NCBI GenBank assembly: GCA_026770585.1
Contig: MU646306.1
Span: forward strand, 1,728,202-1,757,421
Reading direction: 5' to 3'
Origin: Baffinella frigidus
Lineage: Eukaryota > Cryptophyceae > Cryptomonadales > Baffinellaceae
Length of the DNA stretch: 29,220 nucleotides
In this document: piece after piece, positions 3,064-29,185 of the stretch
How the letters are laid out: every line of letters starts with the position of its first letter
Numbering within the stretch: the stretch's first letter is position 1
Notes under the pieces: model-generated
Database searches by the model: none
Told to the model about the DNA's origin: nothing
Seen by the model: the letters and a program-made list of their open reading frames with translations, nothing else
Program-made: the position numbers and the translations under genes

Positions 3064-3127
3064 ATGGTCACTTTTTCAAAATTTATCCGATCAAAAAGTT
3101 AGGAACGCCGTCTGAAAGGGGGTGGAA

Positions 3128-5415: not shown

Positions 5416-6049
5416 ACAACTCCTTTTTGTCAAGGCACTCGGTAGAACAGGTTACGTGTGCCAGTCGTTAGTCTGCTCCGAGACTCTTTTCGGGTTCTGA
5501 ATAAGGGGTAAGTCTGCATAGTTTTAAGACCGAAGGGAGGCCGGTTTCTGGAAGCGTGGAGGGGGATCCGTCGCTTCTTCTTCAAAGTAAACCCATGCTC
5601 TGATCCTGTGTGTGGTGGGGCGCGATGCTGGAGCTCCCCTTGCTTCGCTGCAGCTGAGTTGATACAGAGCTCTCTGTGGCCTGCTTTTGCGTTCCTGTGC
5701 GCGCGCCGGAGACCGACACCGTCGAATCTCTGACCCCTGGGACGTGGACAGGCCTGTTCAGGGTGTGCTGGGCTCGCTGCCCCAGCATGCTTTGACACTT
5801 TTTCTTATGGCGGCTCAGCAGCAGCGTCGTTTCTCCCGCCCCCTCGCCCTTGGTTGGTTCTTTGGTTCTTCATGTCCTTCAGGTTCTCACGCATCACGGC
5901 TCTTCAAAAAAATCACCTCAGGCCTCCGGCGCACAGAGCGGTTTATGGGAACCACGTGACCCGGAAAGCGATTTTCGAGGGATCCGTGACGGCCCATTCA
6001 TTGGACAAAAAAGACATGTCTTCTTCATGGCCACACTGAAGGGACACCT
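5416..6049. other. Unique sequence, no recognised gene
   Basis: Moderately GC-rich sequence. A 122-codon minus-strand frame and a 90-codon plus-strand frame overlap here, but neither shows a known motif, and they overlap each other on opposite strands. I would not call either a gene. Confidence 0.4.
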
Positions 6050-9062: not shown

Positions 9063-9402
9063 AGCACCCTCTGCGGCTCCGCATTTCGCTCGAAGCAGCA
9101 CGTGTCGCGAGGACGGTGGGGAGGGGGGGGTAACAATCTTGAGTAATTATAGTAACTATCTCAACTATCTTAACAAATTGTGGTAACCATCTTAACTAGC
9201 TTCACAATTTTAAGTAATTATGGTTACTATCTTAACGACCGTTTCGTACGAAACGGGGGGGGGCTGCGACGAGGCGTAACGTCGCGAGGGTCTTCCTCCT
9301 CCGGTCTGATAGTCTGATAGTCTGATAGTGCAGGGCGCGGATGCTGCGCGCGAGCGAGGATGAGAGCCTGACGTTCTCGCGCTCGCGGCCTATGGTGCGC
9401 AG

Positions 9403-9482
9403 ATGTCCAGTCCAAACAACGCCCCCTCGACGGGGTCTTCGGTAGTCACCATTCTGGGCGCGATGCTCGGGGCTGATGACCA
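9403..9482 (+). CDS. Large modular surface protein: first recognised IPT/TIG-like exon (E1)
   Basis: The peptide runs MSSPNNAPSTGSSVVTILGA then MLGADDQ. This matches the start of the IPT-like repeats found later in the gene (N....TGS.VVTV.GS.FG..DYS). The donor is GACCA|GTACTG (phase 2). The join to 10307 completes CAG and leads into SARVRLGATACESTTW, exactly the expected repeat continuation. The acceptor is probably GTGCGCAG|ATG, but this ATG could also be a start codon. IPT/TIG domains are immunoglobulin-like folds common in extracellular and receptor proteins. Confidence 0.65.
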
Positions 9483-9608
9483 GTACTGCCCCCCCGCCCC
9501 CCTCGAATTCTACCTTGGTGGAGTCTATTTTTTGTGCACCAATTTGGTGAGCCCGGGCTCTTTTCCGCTCGAAAGTTGACGGATTTGTACCGGAGACCCA
9601 GCAAGTCG

Positions 9609-9648
9609 ACTTGAGAATAGTCGGTCAACCCGAGTGAGGCAGAGCTGG
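9609..9648 (+). repeat. Dispersed 40-bp repeat, copy 2
   Basis: This differs from 7360-7399 by one base (GTCAACCC against GTCGACCC). It lies in the E1-E2 intron. Confidence 0.8.
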
Positions 9649-9902
9649 GAACTCCATGGTGCACGATCACCCGGGCTCGTAACCTGAGACCCACAGCACG
9701 CAACCCTTTCCCCCCGGCAGCCAGCGCTCTCGGTGCCAGGGAGAACATGCCTGCGTGCGCTCTGTTACGAGTCGTGTCTCTCTATCAAGAGACGCTTTAA
9801 CTAGAGAACTCCTTTCAAAAACGTCTCTCGAAGGTTCGCGAGACACAAGCTGCTGGGTGATGATAGCTTGCCATGTGCTTAACAAATAGACGATGTGGTG
9901 AT

Positions 9903-10112
9903 CGGGTTTGGGGTTTAGGGATTGGGGCTGAGGGTTTACGGTGTATGGTTGAGGGTTCCGGGTTCCGGGTTCCGGGTTCCGGGTTCCGGGTTTAGGGTTT
10001 AGGGTTTAGGGTTTAGGGTTTAGGGTTTAGGATTTAGGGTTTAGGGTTTGGGGTTTAGGGTTCAGGGTTTAGGGCTTAGGGTTCAGGGTTTACGGTGTAT
10101 GGTTTAGGGTGC
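9903..10112 (+). repeat. Telomere-like tract in the opposite orientation (TTTAGGG on sense strand)
   Basis: It contains GGGTTCC units followed by nearly pure TTTAGGG units. It lies in the E1-E2 intron and is the one intronic tract that reads TTTAGGG, not CCCTAAA, on the sense strand of its gene. It does not reach either splice site, because more than 190 bp of unique sequence separates it from the acceptor. Confidence 0.85.
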
Positions 10113-10306
10113 AGGGCCACACGCAGCACTTAGAGCGGTATTCGCATCTGTACGCCACGAAAACAATCAAACAATCCCAAACGTCGACAGTTTAGTACCA
10201 GCATCGTCAACTGCCGGCCTTATATCATTTTTTGGTGTGGCGAACAGAAACGAAAAGCGGTCTCTCGAAAGGCGGTATCTAAAGGCGCGGTGTTGGCACC
10301 CCGCAG

Positions 10307-11326: not shown

Positions 11327-11421
11327 CTGGGAGCTGAGTTGGGAGTTGCTGGGGTCCGAGTTGGGAGTTGCTAGGATCGGAGTTGCTCGTTGCTGGGATC
11401 TGAGTTGGGAGTTCCTCCCAG
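11327..11421 (+). repeat. Short tandem repeat GAGTTGGGAGTTGCT
   Basis: Four imperfect units of about 26 bp (GGGATC.GAGTTGGGAGTTGCT) directly precede the E3 acceptor. The final unit changes to GTTCCTCCCAG, which forms the acceptor. Confidence 0.75.
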
Positions 11422-11545
11422 GTGAGCGAGGCGTTCAGCTACGACACCTACGTGGTGTCTTCGATCTCGGCGCACAATGCCACATCGTCTCAACGCGCCA
11501 ACGTGGGGGTCGCCAGAGCGCAGACCATTGCGGTGTTTGGGTCGG
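11422..11545 (+). CDS. Large modular surface protein, exon E3 (end of IPT N1, start of N2)
   Basis: It starts in phase 0 with VSEAFSYDTYVVSSISAHN and ends AQTIAVFGSG. The first eight residues close an IPT-like repeat and the rest opens the next. The donor is TCGG|GTAAACC (phase 1), and the telomere-like repeat begins within the donor region itself. Confidence 0.8.
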
Positions 11546-11716
11546 GTAAACCCTAAACCCTGAACCCTGAACCCTGAACCCTGAACCCTGAACCCTGAAC
11601 CCTGAAACCTACACCCTAAACCATCAATTCTGAACCCTAAACCCTAAACCCTAAACCCCAAACCCTCAATCCTAAACCCTGAACCCTGAACCCTCAACCC
11701 TCAACCCTATAACCAG
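11546..11716 (+). repeat. 171-bp intron made of CCCTAAA-type repeats
   Basis: The intron reads GTAAACCCTAAACCCTGAAC and continues as CCCTGAA, CCCTAAA and CCCTCAA units to TATAACCAG. Essentially no other sequence is present. Its splice sites are supported by the frame join between E3 and E4. Confidence 0.85.
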
Positions 11717-11784
11717 GGTACAGTCACACAGACTACTCCCCAGCGCTGACAATGGCGCACTCCGCATGTCAGAGGACCGAGTGG
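11717..11784 (+). CDS. Large modular surface protein, 68-nt exon E4 (IPT N2)
   Basis: Joined to E3 it reads FGSGYSHTDYSPALTMAHSA then CQRTEW, the central part of an IPT-like repeat (DYS.....G..C....W). The donor is GAGTGG|GTAAACCC in phase 0. The exon is flanked on both sides by telomere-repeat introns and would be missed by simple ORF calling. Confidence 0.8.
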
Positions 11785-12022
11785 GTAAACCCTAAATCCC
11801 AAACCTAACCCTTCCTAAACCCTAAATCCCAAACCCAATCCCAACCCTTCCTAAACCCTCAACCCTCAACCCTCAACCCTCAACCCTAAACCCTAAACCC
11901 CAAACCCTTAACCCTAAACCCTCAACCCCAACCCCCAAACCCCAAACTCTAAACCCTCAACCCTCAACCCCCAACCCTGAACCCTAAACCCTCAACCCTA
12001 ACCCCCTAAACCCTAAACCCAG
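11785..12022 (+). repeat. 238-bp intron made of CCCTAAA-type repeats
   Basis: GTAAACCCTAAATCCC at the donor, then CCCTAAA, CCCTCAA and CCCCAAA units, ending CTAAACCCAG. It is filled with repeat. Confidence 0.85.
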
Positions 12023-12806
12023 GTCACGTCATCCGCAATCAGCTGCAAGACAACAGGGGGGTTGGGGGGGACGCACCGCGTGGTCCTCACAGCGGGCATG
12101 GCCCTCGGGACGCTCACCGAAGCGCTCAGCTACTCCACCCCGCAGCTGCTCGGGAACGCGTACGACACACGCACGTTCCGGGGCTTCGATCGATACAACC
12201 CCGCGCTCCTCCCTGGCGCCGCGTGCGCGGATGGCTCGGCGGAAGCTTTGTTCGCTGACGGGGTGGTGGGGTGCGACGGCGCGTGGGGCGCATCGTCAGC
12301 GTCAGCGTCAGCGGGGGGGCTCGCGGCTGCAGGGCGCGCGCTCTGCTCACCGGGGTTCGAACTCTGCGCGTCCGCGGACGCCGTGGCGGCGCTGGGGGTC
12401 AAGGCGGGGGGGTGCGCGGCGGCTGGGAAGGGCACTTTCTATGTCACGGGCGCGTCCTCGCAGGACGGTTTGAGCTGCGGCGCTGTGGGGGTGGGCGTCA
12501 GCGGGGGTAGTGGGGGGGGGGTAGAAGCGTGGGGGTGCGGGAACGATGGGGATGATTGTAGTGTCGCGGGGTCAGTGGCATGGGGGCAGTCAGATTCGTG
12601 CGGAGTGCTCTCGGGCAGCATCTTCGCATGCGGCAACTTGAGCGAAAGTGGACATTCTGTGCTGGGAGCGTGGAACCGCACGGGCGCCTCGGCGCAGACG
12701 ATTGTGAAGGGGGTGGGGAACGGCGGGGTGATGTGCTGCCGGACCGCCGTGGCCCTGCCACTCGGCGCGCTGAATCAAGGGATCAACTGCGATGACGCGG
12801 CCGCAG
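12023..12806 (+). CDS. Large modular surface protein, exon E5 (end of IPT N2 plus Cys/Gly-rich domain)
   Basis: It begins VTSSAISCKTTGGLGGTHRV and TEALSYS, closing IPT repeat N2 with its second cysteine. It then enters a Gly/Ala/Cys-rich region of about 220 residues with spaced cysteines (ALCSPGFELCAS, GGCAAAGKGTFYV, DGLSCGAVGVG, WGCGNDGDDCS, DSCGVL, FACGN, GVMCCRTAVALP). It looks like a disulphide-rich extracellular domain of a family I cannot name. Two phase-1 ends fit the next exon: a GC donor GCAG|GCACGCC (12806) or a GT donor at 12822, at the edge of a MITE. The 12806 end is listed. Confidence 0.75.
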
Positions 12807-12823
12807 GCACGCCAGCCCCCCGT

Positions 12824-12963
12824 CCACCGACCCTCACGGGAGGACCAAACGTTCGATTTTGTATTTGAAGATTTGCCCTACCAGACCCCCCAAATCTGGA
12901 GGGCTTTCGGGGTAAATCTAAAATCTCATATCGATCATTTGGTCCTCCCGTGAGGGTTGGTGG
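12824..12963. mobile_element. MITE-like element, 140 bp, arms about 28 bp
   Basis: The ends CCACCGACCCTCACGGGAGG(ACCAAA) and (TTTGGT)CCTCCCGTGAGGGTTGGTGG are near-perfect reverse complements. It lies at the very start of the E5-E6 intron, immediately beside one of the two candidate donors. Confidence 0.85.
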
Positions 12964-13069
12964 GTACCACTCTTGCTTACACGCTTTGGCGGTACTAATC
13001 TGTCCCGGTTGAATTTTCGCCATGACGCAAAACCTGGGTGGTTACTCACGCGTGATGGGCCTCTTGCAG

Positions 13070-13112
13070 GCGCGGGATACATCATGTACACCCTCTCGCC
13101 CGCGCAAGCGCG
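13070..13112 (+). CDS. Large modular surface protein, 43-nt micro-exon E6
   Basis: The acceptor is CTCTTGCAG|GCGCGGG and the donor AAGCGCG|GTTCATC. The peptide AGYIMYTLSPAQAR joins in phase 2 to FNAPASNAERF in E7. The frame fits on both sides (phase 1 in, phase 2 out). Confidence 0.75.
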
Positions 13113-13631
13113 GTTCATCCCTCAACCCTACCCCTTTTACCCTAAATCCTACACCGTGCACCCTACACCCTGCACCCTACACCTTGCACCCTACACCCTA
13201 CACCCTAAACCCTACACCCTGGACCCTGTACCCTAAACCCTAAACCCTACACCCTACACCCTGTACCCTGAACCCTCAACCCTACACCCTGCACGCTACA
13301 CCCTACACGCTACACCCTAAACGCTACACGCTACACGCTACACTCTACACCCTACACCCCAAACCCTTTACCCTACACCCTACACCCTACACCCTACACC
13401 CTACACCCAACCCCTGCACCCTAACCCCCAAACCCTAAAACCTAAACCCTAAACCCTAAAACCTGAACCCTGAACCCTAAACCCAAACCCCAAACTCTAC
13501 ACCATAAACCCTCAACCCCAAATCCTATATCCTACACCCTAAACCCCAACCCCCAAACCCCACACCCCAAACCCTACACCCCAAACCCCAAACCCTACAC
13601 CCTAAACCATGCACCCTAAACACTACACCAG
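13113..13631 (+). repeat. 519-bp intron made of CCCTACA/CCCTAAA-type repeats
   Basis: It starts GTTCATCCCTCAACCC and ends CACTACACCAG. From about 13140 to 13420 the dominant unit is CCCTACA, after which CCCTAAA takes over. The bases GTTCA at the donor recur at the start of the next exon. Confidence 0.85.
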
Positions 13632-13810
13632 GTTCAACGCGCCAGCGAGCAACGCCGAACGCTTTGTCTGCGTGGAGCACGACGCAGCGCTCGGGTGGGT
13701 GCACCTGGGGGATTCAGGCGGCGCTCCGTTCCTGCCTGCGGCTACGGACTTGCTTGTCGCTTCTGTCGACTATGACCTTGATGCGGTGCTGTTCCTCTTC
13801 CCCCTGACGC
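13632..13810 (+). CDS. Large modular surface protein, exon E7
   Basis: The peptide FNAPASNAERFVCVEHDAAL, GWVHLGDSGGAPF and LLVASVDYDLDAV follows directly from E6. The downstream frame runs into GA-rich satellite, so the donor must lie before about 13815. Options are GCG|GTGCTG (13785, phase 0), AC|GCGTGG (13808, phase 2, GC donor) and GC|GTGGGA (13810, phase 1). I cannot choose. I do not recognise the family. It probably completes the Cys-containing domain begun in E5. Confidence 0.65.
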
Positions 13811-14020
13811 GTGGGAGAGAGAGACCGAGAGAGGGACACAGCTTGGGAGGGAGAGACTGAAAGAGGGACGTAGCGAGGGAGGGAGGGAGGGAGGGAGGGA
13901 GGGAGGGAGGGAGGGAGGGAGGGAGNNNNNNNNNNNNNNNNNNNNNNNNNNNNNNNGGAGGGAGGGAGGGAGGGCGGGAGGGAGGGAGGGAGGGAGAGAG
14001 AGCACGAGCGGGAGAGACCG
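13811..14020. repeat. (GGGA)n satellite with a 31-base assembly gap
   Basis: GGGAGGGA repeats flank a run of N at 13926-13956. The true repeat length is unknown, so this is an assembly uncertainty and not a biological feature. Confidence 0.95.
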
Positions 14021-14083
14021 ATAACCAGAGTGACGGACCACAACCCCGACCCTCCTTCCTTTTGATCGCTGGTCTAATCCCAG

Positions 14084-14229
14084 GTTTGTACCTGGGGATG
14101 CCGATTTCCGGAGCTCGTTTGTTCAACCAGGGCGGGTTACCCCTCCCCTCGCCACGACTCTCGCCCTCCTGGTGCCGGGTTCACAGCTGCAGTGGGCCTC
14201 TGTCAAGCACAGCGGTGACACTTGAGGAG
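14084..14229 (+). CDS. Candidate exon, possibly of the large gene
   Basis: After a pyrimidine-rich tract and CTAATCCCAG, a frame reads FVPGDADFRSSFVQPGRVTP, PLATTLALLVPGSQLQW and then ASVKHSGDT before a stop. It would fit the GC-donor end of E7 in phase 2. Internal phase-0 donors (CGG|GTTACC, CTG|GTGCCG) could lead to the phase-0 exon at 15703. No known motif is visible, and other frames are also open here. Confidence 0.3.
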
Positions 14230-14321
14230 AGAAATGGGACTGACCGCCCCCCACCTGAAAGTGGACGTTTGGGAAGAACATGGGGTTTTAGAGGTCCCTT
14301 TCCTGGCCTGGAGTGGAGATG

Positions 14322-14423
14322 CGCAGCGTGGCGCGCGAACAGCACTTGCAGGAGCGTTGCAGGAAACCCTAAACCAGGAGCGTTGCAGGAGACCCTAAGC
14401 AGCGTGGCGCGCGAACATCGCTT
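14322..14423 (+). repeat. Nested short duplication
   Basis: GCAGCGTGGCGCGCGAACA appears at about 14322 and 14398, and CAGGAGCGTTGCAGGA at about 14348 and 14375. The copies are separated by single AAACCCTAA telomere-like pieces. Confidence 0.75.
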
Positions 14424-14425
14424 GT

Positions 14426-15702
14426 AGAAGGGTTCTCCAAAACCCTAAACCTCAAAACCGCAAACCGTAAACCGTTAACCGTCAACCGTCAACCGTAAAC
14501 TATAAACCGTAAACCCTCAACCCGCAACCCCACATAATCAACCCCACAACCCCACCCCCTCAACCCCCCACCCTCAACCCGCTACCCTCTACGCCACCAG
14601 ATCACCCTACTACACCCTCCGACGTGGAGCGCCCCAGTGCACGACAGTCACTGTGAGGGTGTCGTGCCGACACCCTCACCCCAATACCCCCAACCCCCCA
14701 GACCCCGAACCCTGAACCCTCAACACTTCCTACATCCTACACCCTCGGACACGCAGGTCACCCTGTTGCACTCTCCAACGTGCACTGCCAGGGCGGAGTT
14801 TTTGTACTAGTCAACTCACCTACGAATGTGTAGTAAAGAAGTACACGTAACATGTACCTCGTTTCTTAAATTGACAGATTTGTGGGGGAGTTGACTTTTG
14901 CAAAATCTTCAGGTTCGCAGTGAACGTGGGGCGCGCCAGTGCACGGGATCATACATCAATGATCTTAGTGCGGCAGGGTACCTACGCGGCACCCTCTCAA
15001 CCCTCAACCCTCAACCCCATCAGTTGACCCTGCTGCACTCTCCGACGTGGAGTGCGCCAGTTCATGGGATTGCGGCAGGGTACCTCCAGGGAGACCTTCA
15101 GGTGGAGCCTAAACCCCGACCCCTCAAGCCTAAACCGTAAACCATAAACTCTACACTATAAACCCTGAAGGCTCAACCCTCAACCCTAAACCCCAAACAC
15201 TCAACTCTCCACCCTTAACCCCAACCCCCAGACCCCAAACCTAAACCCTACACCCTAAACGCTACACCCTGAACCATAAACCATAAACCCGAAACTCCAA
15301 ACCATAAACCCTAAACCCTAAACTCTCAACCCTAAACTCTAAACCCTGAACCATACACCATCAAACCTAAACCCTAAACCCTCGACCCTAAACCCTAAAC
15401 CCTAAACCCCAAACTCTAAACCCTGAACCCTAAACCCTAAACCATGCAGCCTAACGCCTACACCTTGAGGCCCAACGCCGAAAGCCTCAAGCGTAAAGCT
15501 CAAGGCCTAACGCCTAAAGCCTGAAGCCTACAGCCTCAACCCTGAATCATAAACCCCAAACCCTGAACCCTAAACCCTGAACCCTACACCCTATACCCTA
15601 CACTCTACACTCTACACTCCACACCCTACACCCTGCACCCTACACCCTTCACCCTAAACCCCAAACCCCAACCCCAACCCCTCAACCCTCAACCCGAAAC
15701 AG
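14426..15702 (+). repeat. CCCTAAA-type repeats enclosing four exon-like duplicates and a MITE-like stretch
   Basis: Degenerate CCCTAAA, CCGTAAA and CCCTCAA units fill 14426-14590, 14660-14755, 14998-15020 and 15105-15700. Between them lie four related non-repeat blocks (from 14601, 14757, 14913 and 15024), each following a CAG. Near 14812-14900 an imperfect inverted pair (AGTCAACTCACC / GGGGGAGTTGACTT) marks another element related to the one at 11158. Confidence 0.75.
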
Positions 15703-15766
15703 GTTGAACCGGGCGTCTTCGGCGGCGCGAGTGACAGCGGCGAGTTTGAGGTGCGGCTCGAAACCT
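15703..15766 (+). CDS. Large modular surface protein, probable exon E8
   Basis: After the acceptor CCGAAACAG the frame reads VEPGVFGGASDSGEFEVRLE, a plausible beta-rich secreted-protein segment that starts in phase 0. The end is uncertain: ACCT|GTCTAT (phase 1) is listed, while phase-0 donors further on would fit the next exon (16583, phase 0) better. The region 15767-16285 has an open frame but no recognisable motif. Confidence 0.45.
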
Positions 15767-16285
15767 GTCTATCCACACCTCTTGACAAGGGGCTCACAAC
15801 CTGTCCCTCCTCGCCTCTCGGCAAGAGGGTTGATGCTTCCTCCTCCGTGCTGCTCAGTTTGGTGGGCTTTCTGGATGAGGGTGCATCGTGGTGGGGGGTG
15901 TTCTCGAGACACCCCTGTAGCGTAGCACGCTCCTCCCACTCCCTCCCACGGCACGCAGCGTGCCTCGCTACTGTAGCAGGGGTGCTACTTGGAGCCATTG
16001 AAGCTTATCTAAGTCAACCCGGTCTACTTATTGGCGATCGCAAGGTTGCAGCTACAGACACTCTCCTCCCACTCGGCACGCTCCTCCCACCCACGCTACA
16101 CCCTAAACCCTAGGTTTTGGGTGAGGGGGCCCACGCTGGGTGCCCCCTGGCGGTCCGAAATCTTCAAAGTCCTATCTCGAAGCTCCAGATGAGAGTTTCT
16201 GTTAAATCAAGGGGTTTCTTTTGTTTTGGGACTCCAGTTGGGCGGGTGTGTGCGCGGGCGCATGTCCGCACGTCTCTCCCTGCAC

Positions 16286-16463
16286 CTACCACGCAAGAGT
16301 GTAGGGCAGAGTAGCCCACAGGAGAAATAGTAGAATTCTACTATTTCTTAAGTTCATAAGTGGACATTCTTTCCACAGAAAAATCGAAATTTCGGAAAGT
16401 TGTTACAAATTCCGTGTGAACTGGCTTGTTTTCGCAGGCCAGCCTTACACTCTTGCGTGGTAG
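16286..16463. mobile_element. MITE-like element, 178 bp, containing a 26-bp perfect palindrome
   Basis: The ends CTACCACGCAAGAGTGTA and TACACTCTTGCGTGGTAG are exact reverse complements. Inside, at 16323-16348, lies a perfect palindrome with half-site AGAAATAGTAGAA. The element sits in a non-repeat part of the region before E9. Confidence 0.85.
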
Positions 16464-16582
16464 CCTGCGCGTTCCGCTGTGGTGCTATGCGATGAACGAC
16501 CGCCTAAAACCTCAACCCGCAACCCCAAACTCTAACCCCTAAACCCCAACCCCCAACTCCCAACCACCAATCCCCAAACCAG

Positions 16583-16719
16583 GTGCACGGGACCTCCCTC
16601 GCAATCTCACCCGACACCCTCGACCTCTCCACCCTCCCTGCGGCGCTCGGCTCTCTCTACGCGTGGTACACTGTCGCAAGCTTCCGCCGAGGCGGGGAGA
16701 GGAGGTGGTTAGACGCAAG
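16583..16719 (+). CDS. Large modular surface protein, exon E9 (start of LamG-like domain)
   Basis: The acceptor is CCAAACCAG|GTGCAC and the donor GACGCAAG|GTATGAC (phase 2). It encodes VHGTSLAISPDTLDLSTLP then LGSLYAWYTVASFRRGG and RRWLDASG. This is typical of the first strands of concanavalin/LamG-like folds (a surface Trp-rich strand, then W.DASG). LamG-like domains bind carbohydrates or matrix ligands outside the cell. Confidence 0.75.
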
Positions 16720-16890
16720 GTATGACCCTACACCCTCACCCTAACCCCTCAACTCTAAACCCTCAACCCTACACCCTAAACCTCAAACCCTCAACCCTAA
16801 ATCCCAAAATCTCAACCCCACACCCTAAACCCCAACCCCTACACGCTACACGCTACACCCTAAACCCTAAACCCTGAACCCCAAACCCAG
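16720..16890 (+). repeat. 171-bp intron made of CCCTAAA-type repeats
   Basis: From GTATGACCCTACACCC to CCAAACCCAG, consisting of repeat units with a CTACACG run. It has the same length as the E3-E4 intron. Confidence 0.85.
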
Positions 16891-17058
16891 CGGCAACGAG
16901 CAGCACGCTGCGCTCACAGGCCTCGTCTCCGAAAGGCTCGTGGAGGGGCATGGCGCCGGGGCGGGGATCCGCGCCGTTGGGGGGGGGCAGTTATCGTCGG
17001 TGACGTTCCCGAATGGGTCTTTGCCTGCGGGGAACTTCACGGTGTGCGCGGTTGCGCG
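16891..17058 (+). CDS. Large modular surface protein, exon E10 (LamG-like domain)
   Basis: 168 nt, phase 2 on both sides. It encodes GNEQHAALTGLVSERLVEGH, then GQLSSVTFPNGSLP and AGNFTVCAVAR. The strand pattern FTVCAVARY is a hallmark of the middle of these LamG-like domains. The donor GCGCG|GTATTG and the next acceptor CCAG|GTATGC share GTAT. Confidence 0.8.
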
Positions 17059-17299
17059 GTATTGCCCTGAACCCTGAACCCTCAAACATGACCCTAGACT
17101 CAAAGCCCTAAACCCTAAACCTTCAACGCTCAACGCTCAACCCTCAACCCTCAAAACATCAACCCCAAACCCCCAACTCCAACCCCCAACCCCCAAACCC
17201 CAAACCCCGAACCCCAAACCCCAGAACCCACACCCCAGACCCCACACCCCAGACCCCAAACCCCAATCCCCAACCCCTAAACCCCAAACCCCAAACCAG
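17059..17299 (+). repeat. 241-bp intron made of CCCTAAA/CCCCAAA-type repeats
   Basis: From GTATTGCCCTGAACCC to CCAAACCAG, all repeat, with an increasing share of CCCCAAA units near its end. Confidence 0.85.
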
Positions 17300-17644
17300 G
17301 TATGCGGATCCGGACCCTGCGACGCAGGGGAGCGTGATCGCCGCGTCTGAGTCAGAATGGTACCTCGGACACCACCTGGGGCGCGCGGGCGTGGCGTCGG
17401 TGGGGGGGGTGGGGGGGTGGGCGGAGGCGGACGGGGGGAAGGGGGGGGTGACGGACTGGACGGTGGTGTGCGCGCACGGGCAAGCGCCGTTTTTTTTTAA
17501 CGTCAACGGGCGGAAGGGGGGGGGGGCAACGCTGGAGTCTGTCAATGATGAGGCGCCGATCGCGTTTGGGGTGAATCATGCGGACGTCGACCCGGCGAGG
17601 TTTTCCGCGTGGGAGGTGCATGAGGTGGCTGTGTGGAACCGCAC
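17300..17644 (+). CDS. Large modular surface protein, exon E11 (LamG-like domain)
   Basis: It encodes YADPDPATQGSVIAASESEW, YLGHHLGRAGVAS, DWTVVCAHGQAPFFFNVNGR and WEVHEVAVWNRT. These are the expected LamG-like elements: W..GH..GR.GVA, W.VVC......F.VNG, and the closing strand AEVAVWNR. The donor CGCAC|GTAATC leaves phase 2. If not spliced, the frame stops at once (TAA), which supports the donor. It contains long G runs coding for Gly. Confidence 0.85.
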
Positions 17645-17919
17645 GTAATCCCTGGACCCTGAACCCTAAACCCTCAACCTCAAACCCTTAACCCTAAACC
17701 CTAAACCCTTAACCCTTAACCCCAAACCCCAAACCCTAAACCTCAAACCCTTAACCCTTAACCCTAAACCCTGAACCCTAAATCCTAAACCCTCAACCCT
17801 CAACCCTAAACCCTAAACCCTAAACCCTAAACCCTAAACCCTTAACCCTCAACCCTCAACCCTCAACCCCAAACCCTCAACCCTCAACCCCAAACCCTCA
17901 ACCCTCAACCCTAAATCAG
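17645..17919 (+). repeat. 275-bp intron made of CCCTAAA-type repeats
   Basis: From GTAATCCCTGGACCC to CCCTAAATCAG. It is filled with CCCTAAA, CCCTCAA and CCCTTAA units. Confidence 0.9.
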
Positions 17920-17955
17920 GCTCGCCGTCGAGGAGGTGGATGCGGTGGTAGCGCG
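17920..17955 (+). CDS. Large modular surface protein, 36-nt micro-exon E12
   Basis: TCAG|GCTCGCC to GCGCG|GTACCG. It reads LAVEEVDAVVAR and joins E11 and E13 into AVWNRTLAVEEVDAVVARYM, the standard closing helix of LamG-like domains. It enters and leaves in phase 2. It is enclosed by two telomere-repeat introns. Confidence 0.85.
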
Positions 17956-18148
17956 GTACCGAACCCTAGCCCCCAACCCCCAACCTTTAACCCCGAACCC
18001 CTAAACCCTAAACCCTAAACCCCAAAACCCACATCTTAAACACTCAACCCTCACCCCTCACCCCGAACCCCTAACCTCTAATCCCCAACCCCTAATCCCT
18101 AACCTTTAATACCCAAACCCCAACCCTTACCCCTAAACCCCAAATCAG
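17956..18148 (+). repeat. 193-bp intron made of CCCTAAA/CCCCAAC-type repeats
   Basis: From GTACCGAACCCTAGCCCC to CCCCAAATCAG. The donor bases GTAC recur at the start of the next exon (GTACATG). Confidence 0.85.
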
Positions 18149-21100
18149 GTACATGGCGCTTCTGAGCATCGGGAGCGTGGGGGAGGAGGCCCTCTGGACG
18201 CGTCGGGAGCATTCATGGTCAAACTCGCGCACACGCGTCGGGCTCGCGGTGTCGATCACGGTGGCGGGGTCCGGGTTCGGCGTGGACGGCTACACGGCGC
18301 AGCTGCGCACGGGGGGGTCGGCGTGTGACGCGACGTCGTGGACCGCCGAGACTTCTGTCGTGTGCGCGCACCCGATCGGGACGCGTGGGACCACGACCAT
18401 CTCTGTGACTGTGGGGGGGGGAGCCGCGACAGTGTCGGAGGCGCTGTCGTACGACGCAGCGACGGTGGTGGAGGTGGAGGGGTCCAACAGCAACACGGCG
18501 AGCACGGGGGCGGTGAGCATGACGGTGAACGGCGCCGCGTTCGCAGAGAGCGGGTACTCAATGGCCGTGCGGGTGGGCGCCACCGCCGCCGAGGCCACGC
18601 GCTGGGTGTCCGACTCCGCCGTGACCGCTCGGTGGCCCGCGGGGCACCATTCGACGCTGCGCGTGGCGGTGACGGTCGGGGAGGGCGCCGGGACGGTCAC
18701 GGAGATGGCGTCGTTCGACGCGCCGAACCTCTCGGGTCTCCTGCCGCACAACCGCGGAACGACGGGGGCGATGACCATGATGGTGAGCGGGACCTCCTTC
18801 GCGGCGCGCGACTACACGCTGCGCGCCCGCGCAGGGGGCTCCGCGGCTGAGGCCAGCGACTGGCAGAGCGACACGTCGGTGTGGGTGCGCTCCTCGATGG
18901 GCGTCGGTGGCACGATGCGCGTGGCGGTGACCGCGGGGGTGTCAGAGGGGAGCGTGACGGAGGCGCTCTCGTACGACGCGGACAGGGTATCGACGGTGTG
19001 GTACGCCAACCGCGCGGCCACGGGGTCGCTGAGCATCACCGTTGCGGGCGCCGCGCTCGGGCACAACACCTTCACTGCGGGAGCGCGCGTCGGGGGCTCG
19101 GCGTGCGAGGCGAGCCTGTGGACCGCCGACAGCGCTTTACTGTGCCGAAGTGCTGCAGGGAACTTCGGCACGCGGCGCATCTCTGTGACGGCCGGGGGGA
19201 GCGTCAGGTCCGCCACCGAGGCGCTCTCGTACAACGTGCCGCTCCCGGTGCTGGCGCACAACGCGAGCCGGGGGGGCGCGCTGGCGCGCAGCAACGTCGC
19301 GGGCACCGGCGGGCTGAGCATCACCGTGGGCGGGCACGCGTTCGGGACCGTGGACTACTCGATGGGCGGGCGCGTCGGGGATACGTGCGCCGAGGCGTCG
19401 CGGTGGACGTCCGACACCATGATGCTTGTGCGGAGCACATCGGGTGGCACGGTGGGGACGCGTCGCTTGACGCTCACGGTCGGGGCGCGGGGGGGGACGG
19501 TCACGGAGGCGTATTCATACGACTCCTCTCACCCGCAGCAGAAATATTTGGACCACGTGACTGTGAACCACGCGGCGCAGGGTTTGACCATTCTTTCAGT
19601 CAGCGGACAGCACTTCGGGGAGGCTAGCTACTCGCGAGGCGTCCGGGTGGGGGGAACCGCGTCGGAAGGTACAACGTGGGCCTCGGATTCGGCGGTGACG
19701 GCTAAGATGGCAGATGGCTCGCGGGGGACCTTGTCAGTTGCGGTGACGGTTGGGATCCGCGGTGGGAGCTACACCGAGGCGGTGTCGTACGACAAGGTTG
19801 AGTTGTCGACGATGGTGCTCTCGAACCGGCCTGCTACTGGCTCCGCTGTCGTGACAGTTTTCGGCAGTGATTTCGCCACTGCGGACTACTCGGCGGTGAT
19901 ACGTGTTGGGTTCACTTCCTCGGAAAACACGGCGTGGGTTTCCGACACAGCGCTTCATGCACTGGTCGCCGCAGGGGTTGCGGGCAGTAGGCGCGTTGCG
20001 GTGACGGCGGGGGAGAATGTCAACACGGTCAGTGAGGCGGCCTCGTACGACGCTGCGATTGTGTCCACTTTTCTGTACGGGAACAGGGCAGCGTTCAACG
20101 CCTCTGTGTTCAGTGTCAGCGGGAGCCAGATGGGCAGCGCGGACTACTCTGGTGCGTTGCGCTTCGGGTCAACGGGATGCGAATCGAGCGAGTGGATTTC
20201 GGACACGCAAGTGCATGGAATTGTTGCGGCGGGGGTTGAAGGGGCTCTTCGGCTAGTTTTGACTGCGGGGGTTCGTGCGGGCAGTGGGACAGAGGTGGTG
20301 TCGTACGACCTTCCAACTGTGTCGACGATATTCTCAACGAACCATCCTATGACTCATATTTCGTACGCACTGAATTTGAGCGACGATGACTCAGAGGATT
20401 GGTTCGGCATCATCACCAATGTCAGCATCAACGGGACGTACATGATGACGATCAGCGGGTTGAGCTTCAGTGATGTCGACTACACTGGATCGGTTCGTGT
20501 CGGCCACACCACGTGCGAGTCTTCCGTATGGGTTTCAGACACAGCAATTGTCGGCACAGTTCCTCAAGGATTTACTGGGACGCGAGGCATCGGAGTGACA
20601 GCCGGGACCCTGCCGGGCTCAGTGACTGAGACCATTTCTTTCGACGCTCCGATTGTATCGTCCGTGCAGGTCGCTAACTATCCTGCTGGCCAGAATGAGA
20701 GCGTCATCGACATCTCTGGGACTGACTGGGGTGCGCACGACTTCACGGGCTTCGCTCGGCTTGGAGGGACGGCCTGCGAGTCGACAGAATGGTTGTCCGA
20801 CACGGCGCTGACAGGCATTGTTGCGTTGGGCGTGTCTGGGACACATAGCGTGGCGGTGACGGTTGGGATCCGCGGTGGGAGCTACACCGAGGCGGTGTCG
20901 TACGACAAGGTTGAGTTGTCGACGCTGGTGCTCTCGAACCATGCTGCCACTGGCTCCGTGGTCGTGACAGTGTTTGGGAGTGATTTCGCTACATCAGACT
21001 ACTCGGCAGTGGTACACGTTGGATTCACATCCGCCGAAAACACGGTGTGGGTTTCCGACACGGCGCTGAAGGCACTGGTCGCCGCGGGGGTGGCGGGCAG

Positions 21101-24100
21101 TAGGCGCGTTGCGGTCACGGCGGGGGAGAATGTCAACACGGCCAGTGAGGCGGCCTCATACGACGTTGCGATTGTGTCGACTTTTCTGTACGGGAACCGG
21201 GCATCGTTCAACGCTTCTGTGTTCAGTGTGAGCGGGAGTCAGATGGGCAGCGCGGACTACACTCAGGCCCTGCGCTTCGGGTCAACGTCATGCGAATCGA
21301 GCGAGTGGATTTCGGACACGCAAGTGCATGGGATCGTTGCGGCGGGGGTTGACGGGACGCTTCGGCTGGTTTTGACTGCTGGAGTTCGTTCGGGAAGTGG
21401 GACTGAGGTGGTTTCGTACGACCTTCCGACTGTGTCGACGATATTTCCAACGAACCATCCTTTGACCCGTGGTTTGGATCCGCTGAATGTGATTGACGGG
21501 AATTCATCGATGATAGGTTTGAGCTTCAGTGATGTCGACTACACGGGATCTGTTCGTGTCGGCCACACCGCGTGTGAGTCGTCTGTTTGGGTTTCAGACA
21601 CAGCAATCGTCGGCACCGTTCCCCAAGGATACACTGGGACCCGAGGAATGGGAGTGACAGCCGGGACCCTCTTGGGCTCAGTCACTGAGACCCTGTCGTT
21701 CGACGCTCCGATTTTGTCGTCCGTGCAGGTCACCAACTACCCTCCGGGCCAGGATGAGACTTTTATCAACATTTCTGGGTCTGTGTGGGGAGCGCACGAC
21801 TTCACGGGTTTCGCTCGGCTGGGGGGGACGGCGTGCGAATCGACAGAGTGGGTGTCCGACACGGCGCTGACGGGTGTCGTTGCGTTGGGCGTTTCTGGGA
21901 CCTTGACAGTTGCGGTGACGGTTGGGATCCGCGGTGGGAGCTACACCGAGGCGGTGTCGTACGACCTGCCTTCCGTGGAGACGCTGTTTGCGACCAACTT
22001 TCCTCCCACGTTTGACCAGAAGACCCTTCCCATGAACGGGACCAACTTCGGCGCGGCGGATTTCACCCTGCGCGTGCGGACAGGCAGCACAGCGTGCGAG
22101 CAGAGTGAGTGGCTTTCCGAGTACGAAGTCGAGTGTCGTGTCGCCAACGGGCAGCGCAGTACGCTTTCGGTGTCAGTCACGACGGGGCAGGTTGCGCGAA
22201 GCCTGACTGAGGCAGTGTCGTACGACACAGTGTCCATGTCGTTTCTACTGCTCTCCAACTGGTCGACGTTGGTCCCCTCGAACCGCCCTGCCATCGGCTC
22301 CGCTGTCTTGACAGTTTTCGGAAGTGGTTTCGCCACAGAGGACTATTCGGCAATGGTACGTGTTGGGTTTACTTCCTCGGAAAACACGGCGTGGGTTTCC
22401 GACACGGCGCTCTATGCACTGGTCGCCGCAGGGGTTGCGGGCAGTAGGCGCGTTGCGGTCACGGCGGGGGAGAATGTCAACACGGTCAGTGAGGCGGCCT
22501 CGTACGATATCAAGATGGTTTCGAGTGTGCTGTGCGGGAACAGGGCATCGTTCAACGCCTCTGTTTTCAGTGTGAGCGGGAGTCAGATGGGCAGCGCGGA
22601 CTACACTCAGGCCCTGCGCTTCGGGTCAACGTCATGCGAATCGAGCGAGTGGATTTCGGACACGCAGGTGCATGGGATTGTTGCGGCGGGGGCTGAAGGG
22701 ACGCTTCGTCTGGTTGTGACTTCCGGGGTTCGTGCGGGCAGTGGGACAGAGGTGGTGTCGTACGACCTTCCAACTGTGTCGACGATATTCCCAACGAACC
22801 ATCCTTTGACTCGTATGTCGGATGCACTGAATGCCAGCGGCGGGAACGCAACGATTACCGGTTCGAGTTTCGGCGTTTCGGACTACACTGGATCGGTTCG
22901 TGTCGGCCACACCACGTGCGAGTCTTCCGTATGGGTTTCAGACACAGCAATTGTCGGCACAGTTCCTCAAGGATATACTGGGACGCGAGGCATCGGGGTG
23001 ACCGCCGGAACCCTGTCGGGCTCAGTGACTGAGACCATTTCTTTCGACGCTCCGATTGTCTCGTCCGTGCACGTCACCAACTATCCTGCGCCGAATGAGA
23101 CGGCAGTCTCGATCAACATTTCCGGGTCTGACTTGGGCGCGCACGACTTCACGGGCTTCGCTCGGCTTGGAGGGACGGCCTGCGAGTCGACAGAATGGGT
23201 GTCCGACACGGCGGTGACGGGTGTTTTTGCGGTGGGCGTGTCTGGGACACACAGTGTGGCGGTGACGGTTGGGAACTGCGGTAGGAGCTACACCGAGGCG
23301 GTGTCGTACGACAAGGTTGAGTTGTCGACGCTGGTGCTCTCGAACCATGCTGCTACTGGCTCCGTGGTCGTGACAGTGTTTGGAAGTGATTTCGCTACAG
23401 CAGACTACTCGGCAGTGGTACACGTTGGATTCACATCCGCCGAAAACACGGTGTGGGTTTCCAACACGGCGCTGCAGGCACTGGTGTCCGCGGGGGTTGC
23501 GATCAGCAGGCGCGTTGCGGTAACCGTTGGGGAGAATGTCAACACGATCAGTGAGGCGGCCTCGTACAACGTTGCGATGGTGTCAACCTTCCTTTACGGC
23601 AACAGGGCAGCGTTCAACGCCTCTGTTTTCAGTGTGAGCGGGAGCCAGATGGGCACGGCGGATCACAGTGGGGCGTTGCGCTTCGGGTCAACGGGATGCG
23701 AATCGAGCGAGTGGATTTCGGACACGCAGGTGCATGGGATTGTTGCGGCGGGGGCTGAAGGGACGCTTCGTCTGGTTGTGACTGCCGGGGTTCGTGCGGG
23801 CAGTGGGACAGAGGTGGTGTCGTATGACCTTCCAACTGTATCGACGATATTCCCAACGAACCATCCTTTGACTCGTATGTCGGACGCACTGAATGCCAGC
23901 GGCGGGAACGCAACGATTACCGGTTTGAGCTTTGGCGCTGTCGACTACACTGGAACTCTTCGTGTCGGCCACACCACGTGCGAGTCTTCTGTGTGGGTTT
24001 CAGACACAGCAATTGTCGGCACAGTTCCTCAAGGATATACTGGGACGCGAGGCATCGGGGTGACCGCCGGAACCCTGTTGGGCTCATTGACTGAGACCAT

Positions 24101-25254
24101 TTCTTTCGACGCTCCGATTATCTCGTCCGTGCAGGTTACCAACTATCCTGCGCCGAATGAGACGGCAGTCTCGATCAACATTTCTGGGACTGACTGGGGT
24201 GCGCACGACTTCACGGGCTTCGCTCGGCTTGGAGGGACGGCCTGCGAGTCGACAGAATGGGTGTCCGACACGGCGTTGACGGGTGCTGTTGCGTTGGGCG
24301 TGTCTGGGACACATAGCGTGGCGGTGACGGTTGGGATCCACGGTGGGAGCTACACCGAGGCGGTGTCGTACGACCTGCCATCCCTCGAGATGCTGCTTAC
24401 GACCAACTTCCCCCCTACGTTCGATCAGAAGACTCTTCCCATGGAAGGGACCAACTTCGGCTCGGCGGATGTCACCATGAGCGTGCGGACAGGCAGCACC
24501 GCGTGCGAGCAGAGTTCCTGGCTATCTGAGTATGAGGTGGAGTGTCGTGTCGCGTACGGACAGCGGGGGACGCTTCCAGTGACAGTCACGGCGGGGCAGC
24601 GTGCGGCCAGCGTGACCGAGGCGGTGTCGTTCGACACGCCCTCACTCGCCATCGTGAACGCGTCTGCTGGGAGCGCCCCAGGAGACTGGCCTGTCACCAT
24701 CACGGGCGTCAGCTTCGGCGCGTCCGACTCCACGGCCGCTGCTCGCACGGGTGGCACCGCCCTCGAGTACTCCGCGTGGGTATCCGAGGTCGCCGTTCTC
24801 TGCACGGCCGCGCCCGGAATCGGCCGGACGCTGCGCGTGGCTGTCACTGCCGGGTCCACCGCACCCGGGAGCATCACCGAGGCGCTGTCCTACGCCGGGC
24901 CCACGTTCCTCGCGCGCCCGGCCGCGCGGGTGCCCGCGGTGGGCAACAGCACCTTCGCCGCGGGCGTGAGCGACCTCGGTGCCGCGGACTACACGTCAGC
25001 GGTGCGCTTCGGGCAAACGGCGTGCGAGGTCACCGCGTGGAGCTCTGCCGTTGAGGTGCTGTGTACCGCGCCGGCGGGCGCCAGCGGGAACCTCACCGTC
25101 GTCGTCACCTCTGGGGCGCGGGTAGGTACTGTTTTGGACGCGGGGGGTTACGACCCCCCCGGGAATCTCACGTTGAATCCGGTGAGCATCGTGACGCTGG
25201 GCGAGACTGTCGACTTCACGGCTGTCAACTTCGGAACTGTTGAGTTGACTTCCG
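18149..25254 (+). CDS. Large modular surface protein, 7.1-kb exon E13 with 26 complete IPT/TIG-like repeats
   Basis: A single open exon of 2,368 codons between acceptor AAATCAG|GTACATG and donor ACTTCCG|GTGAGC (phase 1). The ATG at 18153 is internal: the residues YMALLS finish the LamG-like domain. Repeats of about 80-95 residues follow, each of the form FG..DY(S/T)...RVG.T.CE...W.SD..........G..GT..VAVT.G...G..TEA.SYD. The fit is to the IPT/TIG immunoglobulin-like fold, though the conserved line is specific to this protein type. Cysteines vary: repeats 1, 4, 15, 24 and 26 keep two, many keep one, and others none. A 27th repeat starts and is continued in E14. The protein is probably extracellular, in adhesion or a cell covering. 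That role is inference. Confidence 0.92.
19794..22226 (+). repeat. Nine-repeat super-unit, copy 1 (ABCD-ABCD-E)
   Basis: Coding repeat. The types are A (KVELST.VLSN), B (VSTFLYGNRA), C (LPTVSTIF.TNHP), D (AP.VSSVQV.NYP) and E (LPSVETLFATNFPPTFDQ). ABCD occupies 19794-20906 and again 20907-21965, and E occupies 21966-22226. Confidence 0.85.
22227..24635 (+). repeat. Nine-repeat super-unit, copy 2 (ABCD-ABCD-E)
   Basis: The same order as copy 1: ABCD 22227-23312, ABCD 23313-24374, E 24375-24635. The first A repeat has an altered start (TVSMSFLLLSNWSTLVPSNR). Long stretches are nearly identical to copy 1 at the DNA level. Confidence 0.85.
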
Positions 25255-25829
25255 GTGAGCGACCCCCGCAACGCCGGGCCTTGCGTTGCGAGAGTCCCAC
25301 GACTTTTGACTGAACCGGGTAGGTTCTGTACCCTGATAAAAGCTAGACCGGGAAGGATTGGTACCCCGCGGAATCAGGAAAGTTGTCGATAGTCGACAAA
25401 ATATAAATAACTGTTGACACATTACAGATAGTGGGATTGACTGCACTGCCCTTTCACACATCGCCTGAGAGATCCATCCTGGTTCGCGCAGTCTTGCCCG
25501 GCCACTTGCTTGGTCGCCCTCACGCTCACCTAAATTCGCACTGGCGCTCTGTGCCAGGGCGAATTTGCACTGTGGGAAGAAGAACCTCTGAAACTCTTCG
25601 GGAAGAAGAAACGCAGAAACTCCCACGACTCGCCTGACATGGTTTTAAGGTAGGTGCAAAGCCTGCTCGGATCAGTTATCGGCATGGGACACACGAAACG
25701 CAGGCCGTTGACATTCAAGTCGTGGGGCGCTTGCGTAGTCGTTGATCCTCAGCTCCCGCGTATATCTCAACCCGTAACCCGAAGCCTTACACCCTAAACC
25801 TCACACCCTGAATCCTGAACCCGGGGCAG
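25255..25829 (+). other. Intron E13-E14, mostly unique sequence
   Basis: It contains a hairpin AAATTCGCACTGGC / GCCAGGGCGAATTT (about 25531-25566), a small palindrome TTGTCGATAGTCGACAA (about 25382) and repeated GGAAGAAGAA motifs. Only the last 60 bp are telomere-like (CCCTAAACC...CCTGAACCC), next to the acceptor GGGGCAG. Confidence 0.65.
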
Positions 25830-27753: not shown

Positions 27754-27965
27754 GCAACACCCTCAACCCTGAACGCTTCTAGGCACAGAGACAACCCCAA
27801 ACCCTCAACGCTTCGAGACACACAGGCAACCCGAAACCCTACACCCGCAACCCCTCTCAGCGTTAAACCACAATCTCTCTTAGCCGACCCTAAACCAGGT
27901 CTAAATCCCGAACCCCTCGACCCGTCAACCCCGCAACCCCTCAACTTTAAGCCCGTATACCTCTC
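27754..27965 (+). repeat. Degenerate CCCTCAA-type tract and 40-bp tandem units at the start of the E16-E17 intron
   Basis: CCCTCAACCCTGAACGCTTC units, with CTTC(T/G)AG(A/G)CACA motifs repeated three times, resemble the end of exon E16 (CTTCTAGACACGCAGGCAAC). This suggests small tandem duplication of the exon end into the intron, mixed with telomere-like repeat. Confidence 0.65.
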
Positions 27966-28168
27966 GACCGCTACCTACAGATCCAGCGCTGTTGACCTTG
28001 CCTCTGGCCGTCTGCTATGCATTCACTACTGTCGAACTTGCATGCCCTCTCAACGTGAACACTCCCAAGGACCCCCCACCAGCCCTCGCACGTGAAGCAT
28101 GTTCTTGCTTCAGCAACCCCCGACTTGTACAAGGGTCGACCGGAAATCGGCACCCCTTAGCACCAATC

Positions 28169-28307
28169 TTATCAGGGGAAACATATTTTTCTTTCATTTG
28201 ATGGCAACGAAAATTACTACACAAATGCTTTAATATTACTAATAAGAATGAATTGTGTGGTAATTTTCGTTGCATCACATGAAAGAAAAATAGGTTTCCC
28301 TGGATAA
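28169..28307. mobile_element. MITE-like element, 139 bp, arms about 57 bp
   Basis: TTATCAGGGGAAACATATTT, then TTCTTTCATTTGATG, then CAACGAAAATTACTACACAA pair with the reverse complement arm ending at 28307, leaving only a short AT-rich centre. It lies in the E16-E17 intron, is AT-rich and has no coding capacity. Confidence 0.85.
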
Positions 28308-28444
28308 AATCCGCAAGACCCAACCGACAGCCATCCTCAACTTCCCATGCCTGGTTTTGAGACCGTCTCAAAAACGTCACATCCGTTTTCGGATTGATCT
28401 AATTAAAAAAATGAAGTGTTGAACCCACCGTCTCACGCTCACAG

Positions 28445-28591: not shown

Positions 28592-29058
28592 GTCTCTCTC
28601 TCTCTCTCTCTCTCTCTCCCGTCTCCCGGTGCCGTCTCTCATTCCGCCCGGCCTGAGTGAATCTACGTTGGGGTCCTCATAACCTTGCATCCTTAGGTGC
28701 ACCAACCACGGTGCTGTCTCCCCGACGCCCCGTGAGAGATCCGAGTCGAAAGTCTGCGCGCGGTTTTTGAGGTGTTTGTAAAAAAGGTACAAGGAGCTCC
28801 CTGTATTCTCGCTGAGCTCCAGCGCACCACGCAGGGCCCCTGTAGGGGAGGGTGGAGCCCACGTTGTGTACGGAAATCAAAGCCGATTCCGATAGGATTT
28901 TGTTTTCGAAGCTAGAATTACCGAGAGAGATCCTCGTCCTTGAGGCCTCCCGCGTCCGTGTTAAGATATCACCGAAGCGAGCACGATTCCTCTCTGATCA
29001 CGTTGGAAGGCTGAACACGTCCCTTGGGGGTTTTCAATGATCGCTGCTCCTCTCACAG
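28592..29058 (+). other. Intron E17-E18
   Basis: It starts with (TC)n at 28592-28618 and is otherwise unique sequence without a recognisable exon. It ends with CTCTCACAG. Confidence 0.65.
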
Positions 29059-29131: not shown

Positions 29132-29185
29132 GTACCTGAACCCTGAACCTTGAACTCTAAACTTGAAAACCCTCAACCATGAACC

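What the first reader, a model, noticed from the sequence alone, without database searches (positions are those of the whole stretch)
11546..18148. Introns built almost entirely from telomere-like CCCTAAA repeats
Seven introns (11546-11716, 11785-12022, 13113-13631, 16720-16890, 17059-17299, 17645-17919, 17956-18148) consist of a donor GT with about 3-8 bases, then uninterrupted degenerate CCCT(A/C/G)AA heptamers, then a unit altered to end in CAG. An eighth begins at 29132. They are validated by in-frame joining of conserved IPT-like and LamG-like peptides across them. I know of introner elements in algae, but not of introns whose whole body is telomeric repeat. This may be a distinct route of intron gain, such as telomerase or repeat capture at breaks.
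Basis: partly seen in the sequence, partly recalled or inferred. Interest (0 to 1): 0.87.

Follow-up and report, generated by a model that had tools for sequence, protein, structure and literature searches.

The report
Introns made of telomere repeats
In a cryptophyte alga, 8 of 26 predicted introns sampled in housekeeping genes, and all seven flagged in this window, consist almost entirely of telomere-type CCCTAAA repeats; they likely arose when such repeats were inserted into genes at DNA breaks, which would be a new way of making introns.

Summary
All seven tracts are GT...CAG intervals that are 95-99% degenerate CCCTAAA array, with 1-6 non-repeat bases at the 5' end and 2-4 at the 3' end. 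Four are crossed by an ungapped alignment to an uninterrupted homologue, two lie inside a TIG domain rebuilt by splicing, and one (13113-13631) rests on an open frame. The window lies in a 382-Mb assembly whose HSP70 matches a GenBank protein of Baffinella frigidus exon by exon. In HSP70, CCT and kinesin genes picked without regard to repeats, 8 of 26 introns are at least 90% array and 18 of 26 contain one. Orientation is strongly biased: 27 of 28 array-bearing introns, and all 15 pure ones, have the C-rich strand in sense. A perfect (CCCTAAA)n has no GT, no AG and a stop in every frame, so it can serve as splice-silent filler. Short target-duplication-like matches flank pure introns more often than shuffles. 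I favour insertion of telomeric repeats at breaks in exons (0.5) over repeats taking over old introns (0.33). No RNA reads or empty orthologous sites could be examined. Nine searches of an open-access library turned up no description.

The parts
11546..11716 (+). intron, 171 bp, 98% CCCTAAA-type array, sense
   Evidence: inside a TIG domain
11785..12022 (+). intron, 238 bp, 99% array, sense
   Evidence: inside a TIG domain
13113..13631 (+). intron, 519 bp, 99% array, sense; donor GTTCA repeated at start of next exon
   Evidence: open frame only, no family match
16720..16890 (+). intron, 171 bp, 96% array, sense
   Evidence: P0154 aligns across the junction
17059..17299 (+). intron, 241 bp, 97% array, sense; GTAT repeated at start of next exon
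   Evidence: P0154
17645..17919 (+). intron, 275 bp, 98% array, sense
   Evidence: P0154
17956..18148 (+). intron, 193 bp, 95% array, sense; GTAC repeated at start of next exon
   Evidence: P0154
29132..29220 (+). start of an eighth array intron; its end lies in an assembly gap
   Evidence: donor agrees with P0016; N run follows
11421..11545 (+). exon, TIG
11717..11784 (+). exon, TIG
16583..16719 (+). exon, LamG-like region
16891..17058 (+). exon, LamG-like region
17300..17644 (+). exon, LamG-like region
17920..17955 (+). 36-bp exon between two array introns
18149..25254 (+). long exon with 26 TIG stretches and no intron
   Evidence: 3' end
9483..10306 (+). intron, 824 bp, holding an ANTISENSE array (9904-10116): the exception to the orientation rule
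   Evidence: TIG 21.7 bits without and 44.5 bits with the join
25255..25829 (+). mixed intron, 10% array, sense
   Evidence: P0016
25988..26688 (+). intron without array
   Evidence: P0016
26778..27677 (+). intron without array, one base off the TIG position of intron 11546
   Evidence: P0016; the position comparison is read by eye
27754..28444 (+). mixed intron, 22% array, sense, GC donor
   Evidence: P0016 exons on both sides; junction read by eye
28592..29058 (+). intron without array
   Evidence: P0016

Best explanation
Many predicted introns of this alga's nuclear genes consist almost wholly of degenerate CCCTAAA telomere-type arrays lying C-rich strand in sense, and they likely arose when telomeric repeats were inserted into exons at DNA breaks and would have been spliced out at once. 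SHOWN: in 15 pure introns the array comes within 0-11 bases of the donor and 2-11 of the acceptor, all 15 in sense; a perfect CCCTAAA array contains neither GT nor AG, has a CTAA in every unit and a stop in all three frames every 21 bases; neighbouring units share variants more than shuffles do. INFERRED: a staggered break in an exon is filled with telomeric DNA (by telomerase or by capture); the spliceosome pairs a GT from the exon or target duplication with the first AG after the array; CTAA units serve as branch sites; G-rich-sense insertions, which carry an AG in every unit, mostly fail and are lost; the arrays then grow and diverge by local tandem duplication.
For: Blind sample of HSP70, CCT and kinesin introns: 8 of 26 are at least 90% array and 18 of 26 contain an array. 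Orientation: 27 of 27 array-bearing introns of that table in sense, 27 of 28 with the later exception (p 2e-7; pure 15 of 15, mixed 12 of 13), while exact arrays genome-wide are near-equal on both strands. Acceptors of pure introns: CAG in 14 of 15, AAG in 1. Donor bases +3 to +8 match the start of the next exon 33 times against 22.4 in shuffled pairings for 15 pure introns (p 0.003), runs of at least 4 in 3 against 0.53 (p 0.01); for the 23 other introns 43 against 36.9 (p 0.12) and 0 against 0.69. C62 HSP70 has pure introns at four places where paralogue C293 reads through and the C709 copy has no intron in the whole domain. Neighbouring units identical 83 times against 45.7, 0 of 5,000 shuffles. 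AG 7.1 against 11.7 per kb and GT 3.0 against 6.3 inside 13 intron arrays and 20 other arrays (p 0.047 each).
Against: No RNA evidence was seen; joins rest on protein alignment and one GenBank gene model. In one search two of three measures of flanking repeats did not exceed shuffles, and most pure introns have no run of 4. Mixed introns are common (10 of 26 in the blind sample). The intron at RRI|RTACE is shared by two HSP70 paralogues with 23% and 94% array, and introns 11546 (array) and 26778 (no array) sit one base apart in the TIG domain. An antisense array exists in intron 9483-10306. AG is not depleted among G (p 0.78). The arrays are degenerate, so not recent.
Confidence: 0.5

Rival explanations
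1. Takeover of old introns. The genome is full of interstitial CCCTAAA arrays; arrays entered and expanded inside existing introns, deletion removed the rest, and splicing selection kept the C-rich strand in sense.
For: Arrays are everywhere: 11% of 16,775 non-N bases in the five of 17 arbitrary stretches that held any sequence. Mixed introns are common, with arrays often at one edge. One shared and one nearly shared intron position differ in array content. One antisense array lies in a long intron. Adjacent units show local expansion.
Against: In 15 pure introns the array replaces all but 0-11 and 2-11 end bases, which takeover would have to reach repeatedly while keeping splicing. Four pure introns have no counterpart in two HSP70 paralogues. 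Donor/exon matches exceed shuffles in pure but not clearly in other introns.
Confidence: 0.33
2. An introner-like mobile element that carries or targets telomeric arrays inserts into genes, takes its donor from the target duplication and brings its own CAG.
For: CAG ends in 14 of 15 pure introns and GTNN repeats at three window introns resemble introners that carry the 3' site and recruit the 5' site from the duplication (PMC9860276 passages).
Against: Pure introns are not copies of one element: 9 of 105 pairs exceed all 20 unit shuffles, 5 expected. Lengths run from 115 to 519 bp. No shared body beyond the repeat was seen. Inverted terminal repeats were not tested for.
Confidence: 0.1
3. Assembly or annotation artefact, or a pseudogene, rather than spliced introns.
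For: The published Baffinella assembly is short-read AllPathsLG (PMC9756366 passages), the held assembly has large N stretches and the window ends at one. No RNA was examined.
Against: The same design recurs in HSP70, CCT and kinesin with conserved frames. The arrays differ from intron to intron. A GenBank protein and two uninterrupted homologues agree with the joins.
Confidence: 0.04

Closest known systems
Introners (Gozashti et al. 2022, PMC9860276; passages seen)
   Same: Many introns of one genome share body sequence that runs close to both splice sites; in some families the donor comes from a target duplication and the element brings its 3' site.
   Different: Here the shared body is a simple telomere-type repeat, not copies of one element. 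That survey filtered out low-complexity families, so it would have removed such introns.
Introns gained by double-strand-break repair in Daphnia (PMC4202315; passages seen)
   Same: New introns with short direct repeats at their ends, 4-12 bp in that paper, ascribed to staggered breaks.
   Different: Telomeric filler does not come up there ('telomer' 0 times in the text). Here flanking repeats are weaker and no intron-free allele was available.
Interstitial telomeric sequences inserted at breaks in mammals (PMC7215372; passages seen)
   Same: Telomeric repeats inserted at break sites with deletions, added bases or target duplications.
   Different: That paper found none of the human repeats in exons, explained it by stop codons, and left their effect on splicing open. 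Here such inserts appear to have become introns.

Membership tests
Spliceosomal (GT-AG) introns | GT...AG ends whose removal restores a conserved protein frame | tested here: met
   one of the seven (13113) by open frame only
Spliceosomal (GT-AG) introns | Removal seen in RNA | not testable with these tools
   no RNA reads were available; P0154 and P0016 are uninterrupted ORFs whose source type is not stated
Introners | Introns with similar sequence extending to near both splice sites | tested here: met
   array within 0-11 and 2-11 bases of the ends in 15 introns
Introners | Copies of one mobile element, low-complexity families excluded | tested here: not met
   9 of 105 pairs above all 20 unit shuffles, 5 expected; such families are filtered in the survey
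Introners | Target site duplication (in part of the families) | tested here: inconclusive
   33 against 22.4 matches, p 0.003, in pure introns; two of three measures not above shuffles
Introners | Terminal inverted repeats (in part of the families) | not tested
   no call looked for them
Break-repair introns (Daphnia type) | Direct repeats of 4-12 bp at the two ends | tested here: inconclusive
   3 of 15 pure introns have a run of at least 4 bases from the donor (0.53 expected); one more (C62 5817) has 8 of 9 bases
Break-repair introns (Daphnia type) | Presence/absence of the intron between alleles or close relatives | not testable with these tools
   states that G000 has no relatives held; only paralogues were compared
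Interstitial telomeric sequences | Telomere-type repeats at non-terminal sites | tested here: met
   arrays inside C4, C62, C94, C293 and C942
Interstitial telomeric sequences | The repeat equals the organism's own telomere unit | not tested
   chromosome ends were not examined; TTTAGGG as a telomere unit of cryptophytes is recalled, not seen

The most novel reading that the evidence does not exclude
Telomeric DNA is a genome-scale source of new spliceosomal introns: because the C-rich telomere strand has no GT and no AG and offers a branch-site-like CTAA in each unit, an insertion of it into an exon in the right orientation is an intron from the first day, so healing of breaks with telomeric repeats has seeded introns across this alga's genes, housekeeping genes included.
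Probability: 0.42. Interest if true: 0.9.

Novelty: new variant of a known kind. Interest (0 to 1): 0.8.

Why it matters
Where new introns come from is a long-standing question, and the largest introner survey set low-complexity introns aside. Here a plain repeat with a simple splicing logic (no GT, no AG, stops in all frames, one favoured orientation) makes up whole introns in HSP70 and kinesin genes and much of those in a CCT gene. That makes telomere-derived intron gain directly testable with RNA reads and other cryptophyte genomes, and it bears on a question left open in mammalian work: how telomeric repeats inside genes affect splicing.

Tried and rejected
Copies of exon ends inside introns as the source of pure array introns: 0 of 14 (exon head) and 1 of 14 (exon tail) pure introns at rank p <= 0.05, against 4 and 3 of 16 mixed or array-free ones; rejected for pure introns. 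Copy-and-paste of one array: not supported. AG avoidance beyond general loss of G: not shown (p 0.78); the 20 comparison arrays include 9904-10116, which later proved intronic, and the place of the others relative to genes is unknown. A strict sense-only rule: rejected. The first direct-repeat test (26 introns) was significant in one of three measures only. A loose test of end signals on 57 blocks (25 with GT and CAG near the ends) ran without its control and is not used. Searches used a wrong end (4410/4411) for one HSP70 intron; corrected to 4412. IMG/VR: one pattern scan gave nine contigs with short arrays and no intron design; one protein scan found no relative. Arbitrary sampling of contigs 1-17: 12 of 17 stretches were all N. 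A wanted genome-wide count of CCAGG-ended arrays did not complete. The HSP70 hits on C226, C190, C1204, C467 and C1133 were left out of the count because their junctions were not resolved.
Full report
WHAT WAS CLAIMED AND WHETHER IT IS THERE. The finding lists seven introns made of CCCTAAA-type repeats. Every coordinate pair is a GT...CAG interval. A cyclic-repeat HMM that I wrote labels 95-99% of each as C-rich array on the + strand, with 1-6 non-repeat bases after the exon and 2-4 before the next. The unspliced stretch 16580-18500 has stops in all three frames; the spliced frame is open and gives TIG (IPT) and LamG-like protein (the LamG match, 26.2 bits, is just below Pfam's cut-off of 27.6).

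HOW WELL THE JOINS ARE SUPPORTED. A homologue, P0154 (399 aa, on a 2,775-base contig of a JGI source), aligns over 342 columns at 57% identity with a single 1-residue gap, and crosses the joins at introns 16720, 17059, 17645 and 17956 without a gap. Introns 11546 and 11785 lie inside one TIG match of the spliced piece. Intron 13113 has no homologue support. P0016 (1,356 aa, on a 4,961-base contig of a JGI source) supports five further introns between 25255 and 29058 and the donor at 29132. The 27754-28444 junction, with a GC donor, I read by eye: the GT-only script returned other pairs there. Whether P0154 and P0016 come from transcripts is not stated by the tool. After the window the assembly is N.

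WHOSE GENOME. The window is C4:1728202-1757421 of a 382-Mb assembly in 1,364 contigs. Relatives of the TIG exon that bear a name include the cryptophytes Hanusia, Rhodomonas and Baffinella. GenBank 'heat shock protein 70, partial [Baffinella frigidus]' (P0034) is identical to the exons that I hold of the HSP70 gene on C62, apart from residues at the ends of local alignments; some of its residues fall in N stretches. The published Baffinella sp. CCMP2293 assembly (534.5 Mb, 41.1% repeats; passages of PMC9756366) differs in size from G000, and the contig given for P0034 (1,040,128) from C62 (1,026,616), so G000 may be another version or a filtered set. The words 'intron' and 'telomer' do not occur in that paper's main text.

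IS IT WIDESPREAD. I searched HSP70, CCT and kinesin without regard to repeats, then read small stretches. Fourteen HSP70 introns were placed by a script that scores GT/AG pairs near the exon edges against the genome's own intronless HSP70. Two more HSP70 introns (4251-4412, 5512-5697), five CCT and five kinesin introns were placed by reading the frame against protein motifs that I recall, and fixed. P0034 joins the HSP70 exons at the same places, with one extra Q at intron 5121-5435. The rebuilt kinesin piece scores 91 bits for the motor domain. Of the 26 introns, 8 are at least 90% array, 10 more contain an array (smallest 23 bases) and 8 none; 2,614 of 7,242 bases are array. By gene: HSP70 7 of 16, CCT 0 of 5, kinesin 1 of 5 pure.

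ORIENTATION. In the 38 introns, 27 contain arrays, all with the C-rich strand in sense. Later I found an exception: a TIG half-domain at 9388-9482 joins the exon at 10307 (TIG 44.5 bits with the join, 21.7 without), and the 824-bp intron between them holds an antisense array at 9904-10116. So 27 of 28 (two-sided binomial p 2e-7, treating introns as independent, which they are not quite), 15 of 15 pure and 12 of 13 mixed. Genome-wide, exact arrays are near-equal on the two strands (27,288 and 25,832).

WHY THE C-RICH STRAND WORKS AS AN INTRON. The sequence itself shows that (CCCTAAA)n has no GT and no AG, contains CTAA in each unit (branch-site-like; consensus recalled), and has TAA in all three frames every 21 bases. 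Its reverse complement TTTAGGG has an AG in every unit. Arrays in introns have fewer G (38 against 58 per kb, p 7e-5), AG and GT (p 0.047 each) than arrays elsewhere, but AG is not rarer among G (p 0.78). Five of the seven window introns have no AG before the last one. That splicing selects the orientation is inference.

TRACES OF ORIGIN. In pure introns the bases after the donor GT resemble the start of the next exon more than in shuffled pairings (33 against 22.4, p 0.003, n = 15); the 23 others do not clearly (43 against 36.9, p 0.12). Examples: GTTCA/GTTCA, GTAT/GTAT, GTAC/GTAC, and GTCTTCGAG/GTGTTCGAG with one difference (strings). In an earlier set of 26 introns the length of exact repeats was not above shuffles (81 against 81.6; 4 against 4.9 of at least 5). 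Adjacent units are identical 83 times against 45.7, so arrays grow by local duplication. The introns are not copies of each other. C62 HSP70 has four pure introns across codons where paralogue C293 reads through, while both share the intron at RRI|RTACE. This fits gain in C62 but does not exclude loss in C293.

MECHANISM AND RIVALS. I commit to insertion of telomeric repeats into exons at breaks, with the donor from the target and immediate splicing, at 0.5. Takeover of old introns by spreading arrays is a serious rival at 0.33, backed by mixed introns, the shared positions and the antisense case. An introner-type element is less likely (0.1) and an artefact unlikely (0.04).

KNOWN OR NEW. Introners, break-repair introns and interstitial telomeric sequences are each known. 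Introns that are themselves telomeric repeat I did not find in nine searches of the open-access PMC library (listings seen, four papers looked at in passages by word search, and a fifth, PMC12220804). Subscription papers and preprints are not covered. The introner survey removed low-complexity families, and a study of human interstitial repeats reports none in exons. Hence: new variant of a known kind.

Noticed in passing
window 18149-25254: One 7.1-kb exon holds 26 TIG stretches without an intron, next to TIG and LamG exons cut by array introns.
   Followed up: partly
window 27738-27840: A 35-bp unit made of the exon end (GCTTCTAGACACRCAGGCAAC) plus two array units is repeated about three times across the exon/intron border.
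   Followed up: partly
L047:255-706 (CCT) and L060 minus strand 151-770 (kinesin): Introns hold degenerate extra copies of the neighbouring exon's sequence separated by CCCTAAA arrays, as if exon edge and array had been duplicated together.
   Followed up: partly
window 3120-5416: Over 2 kb of TTTAGGG-type arrays (C-rich on the minus strand) with short non-repeat gaps, upstream of a 292-aa minus-strand ORF at 1236-2114; no clear splice sites at the gaps by eye.
   Followed up: no
window 12830-12965 and 6210-6360: Inverted repeats around GGAGGACCAAA and around AATGGCTCCAAGCCC that look like small transposon ends (read by eye).
   Followed up: no
G000:C709:130108-134621 (L029, L030): Two HSP70 genes on opposite strands, each matching the whole 599-position family without an intron or stop, and no array in the 4.8-kb loci, unlike the intron-rich HSP70 on C62.
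   Followed up: partly
L049, L050, L051, L052, L054, L055, L057: Seven of nine IMG/VR contigs share one place where a CCCTAAA tandem array of varying length sits between near-identical flanks.
   Followed up: no
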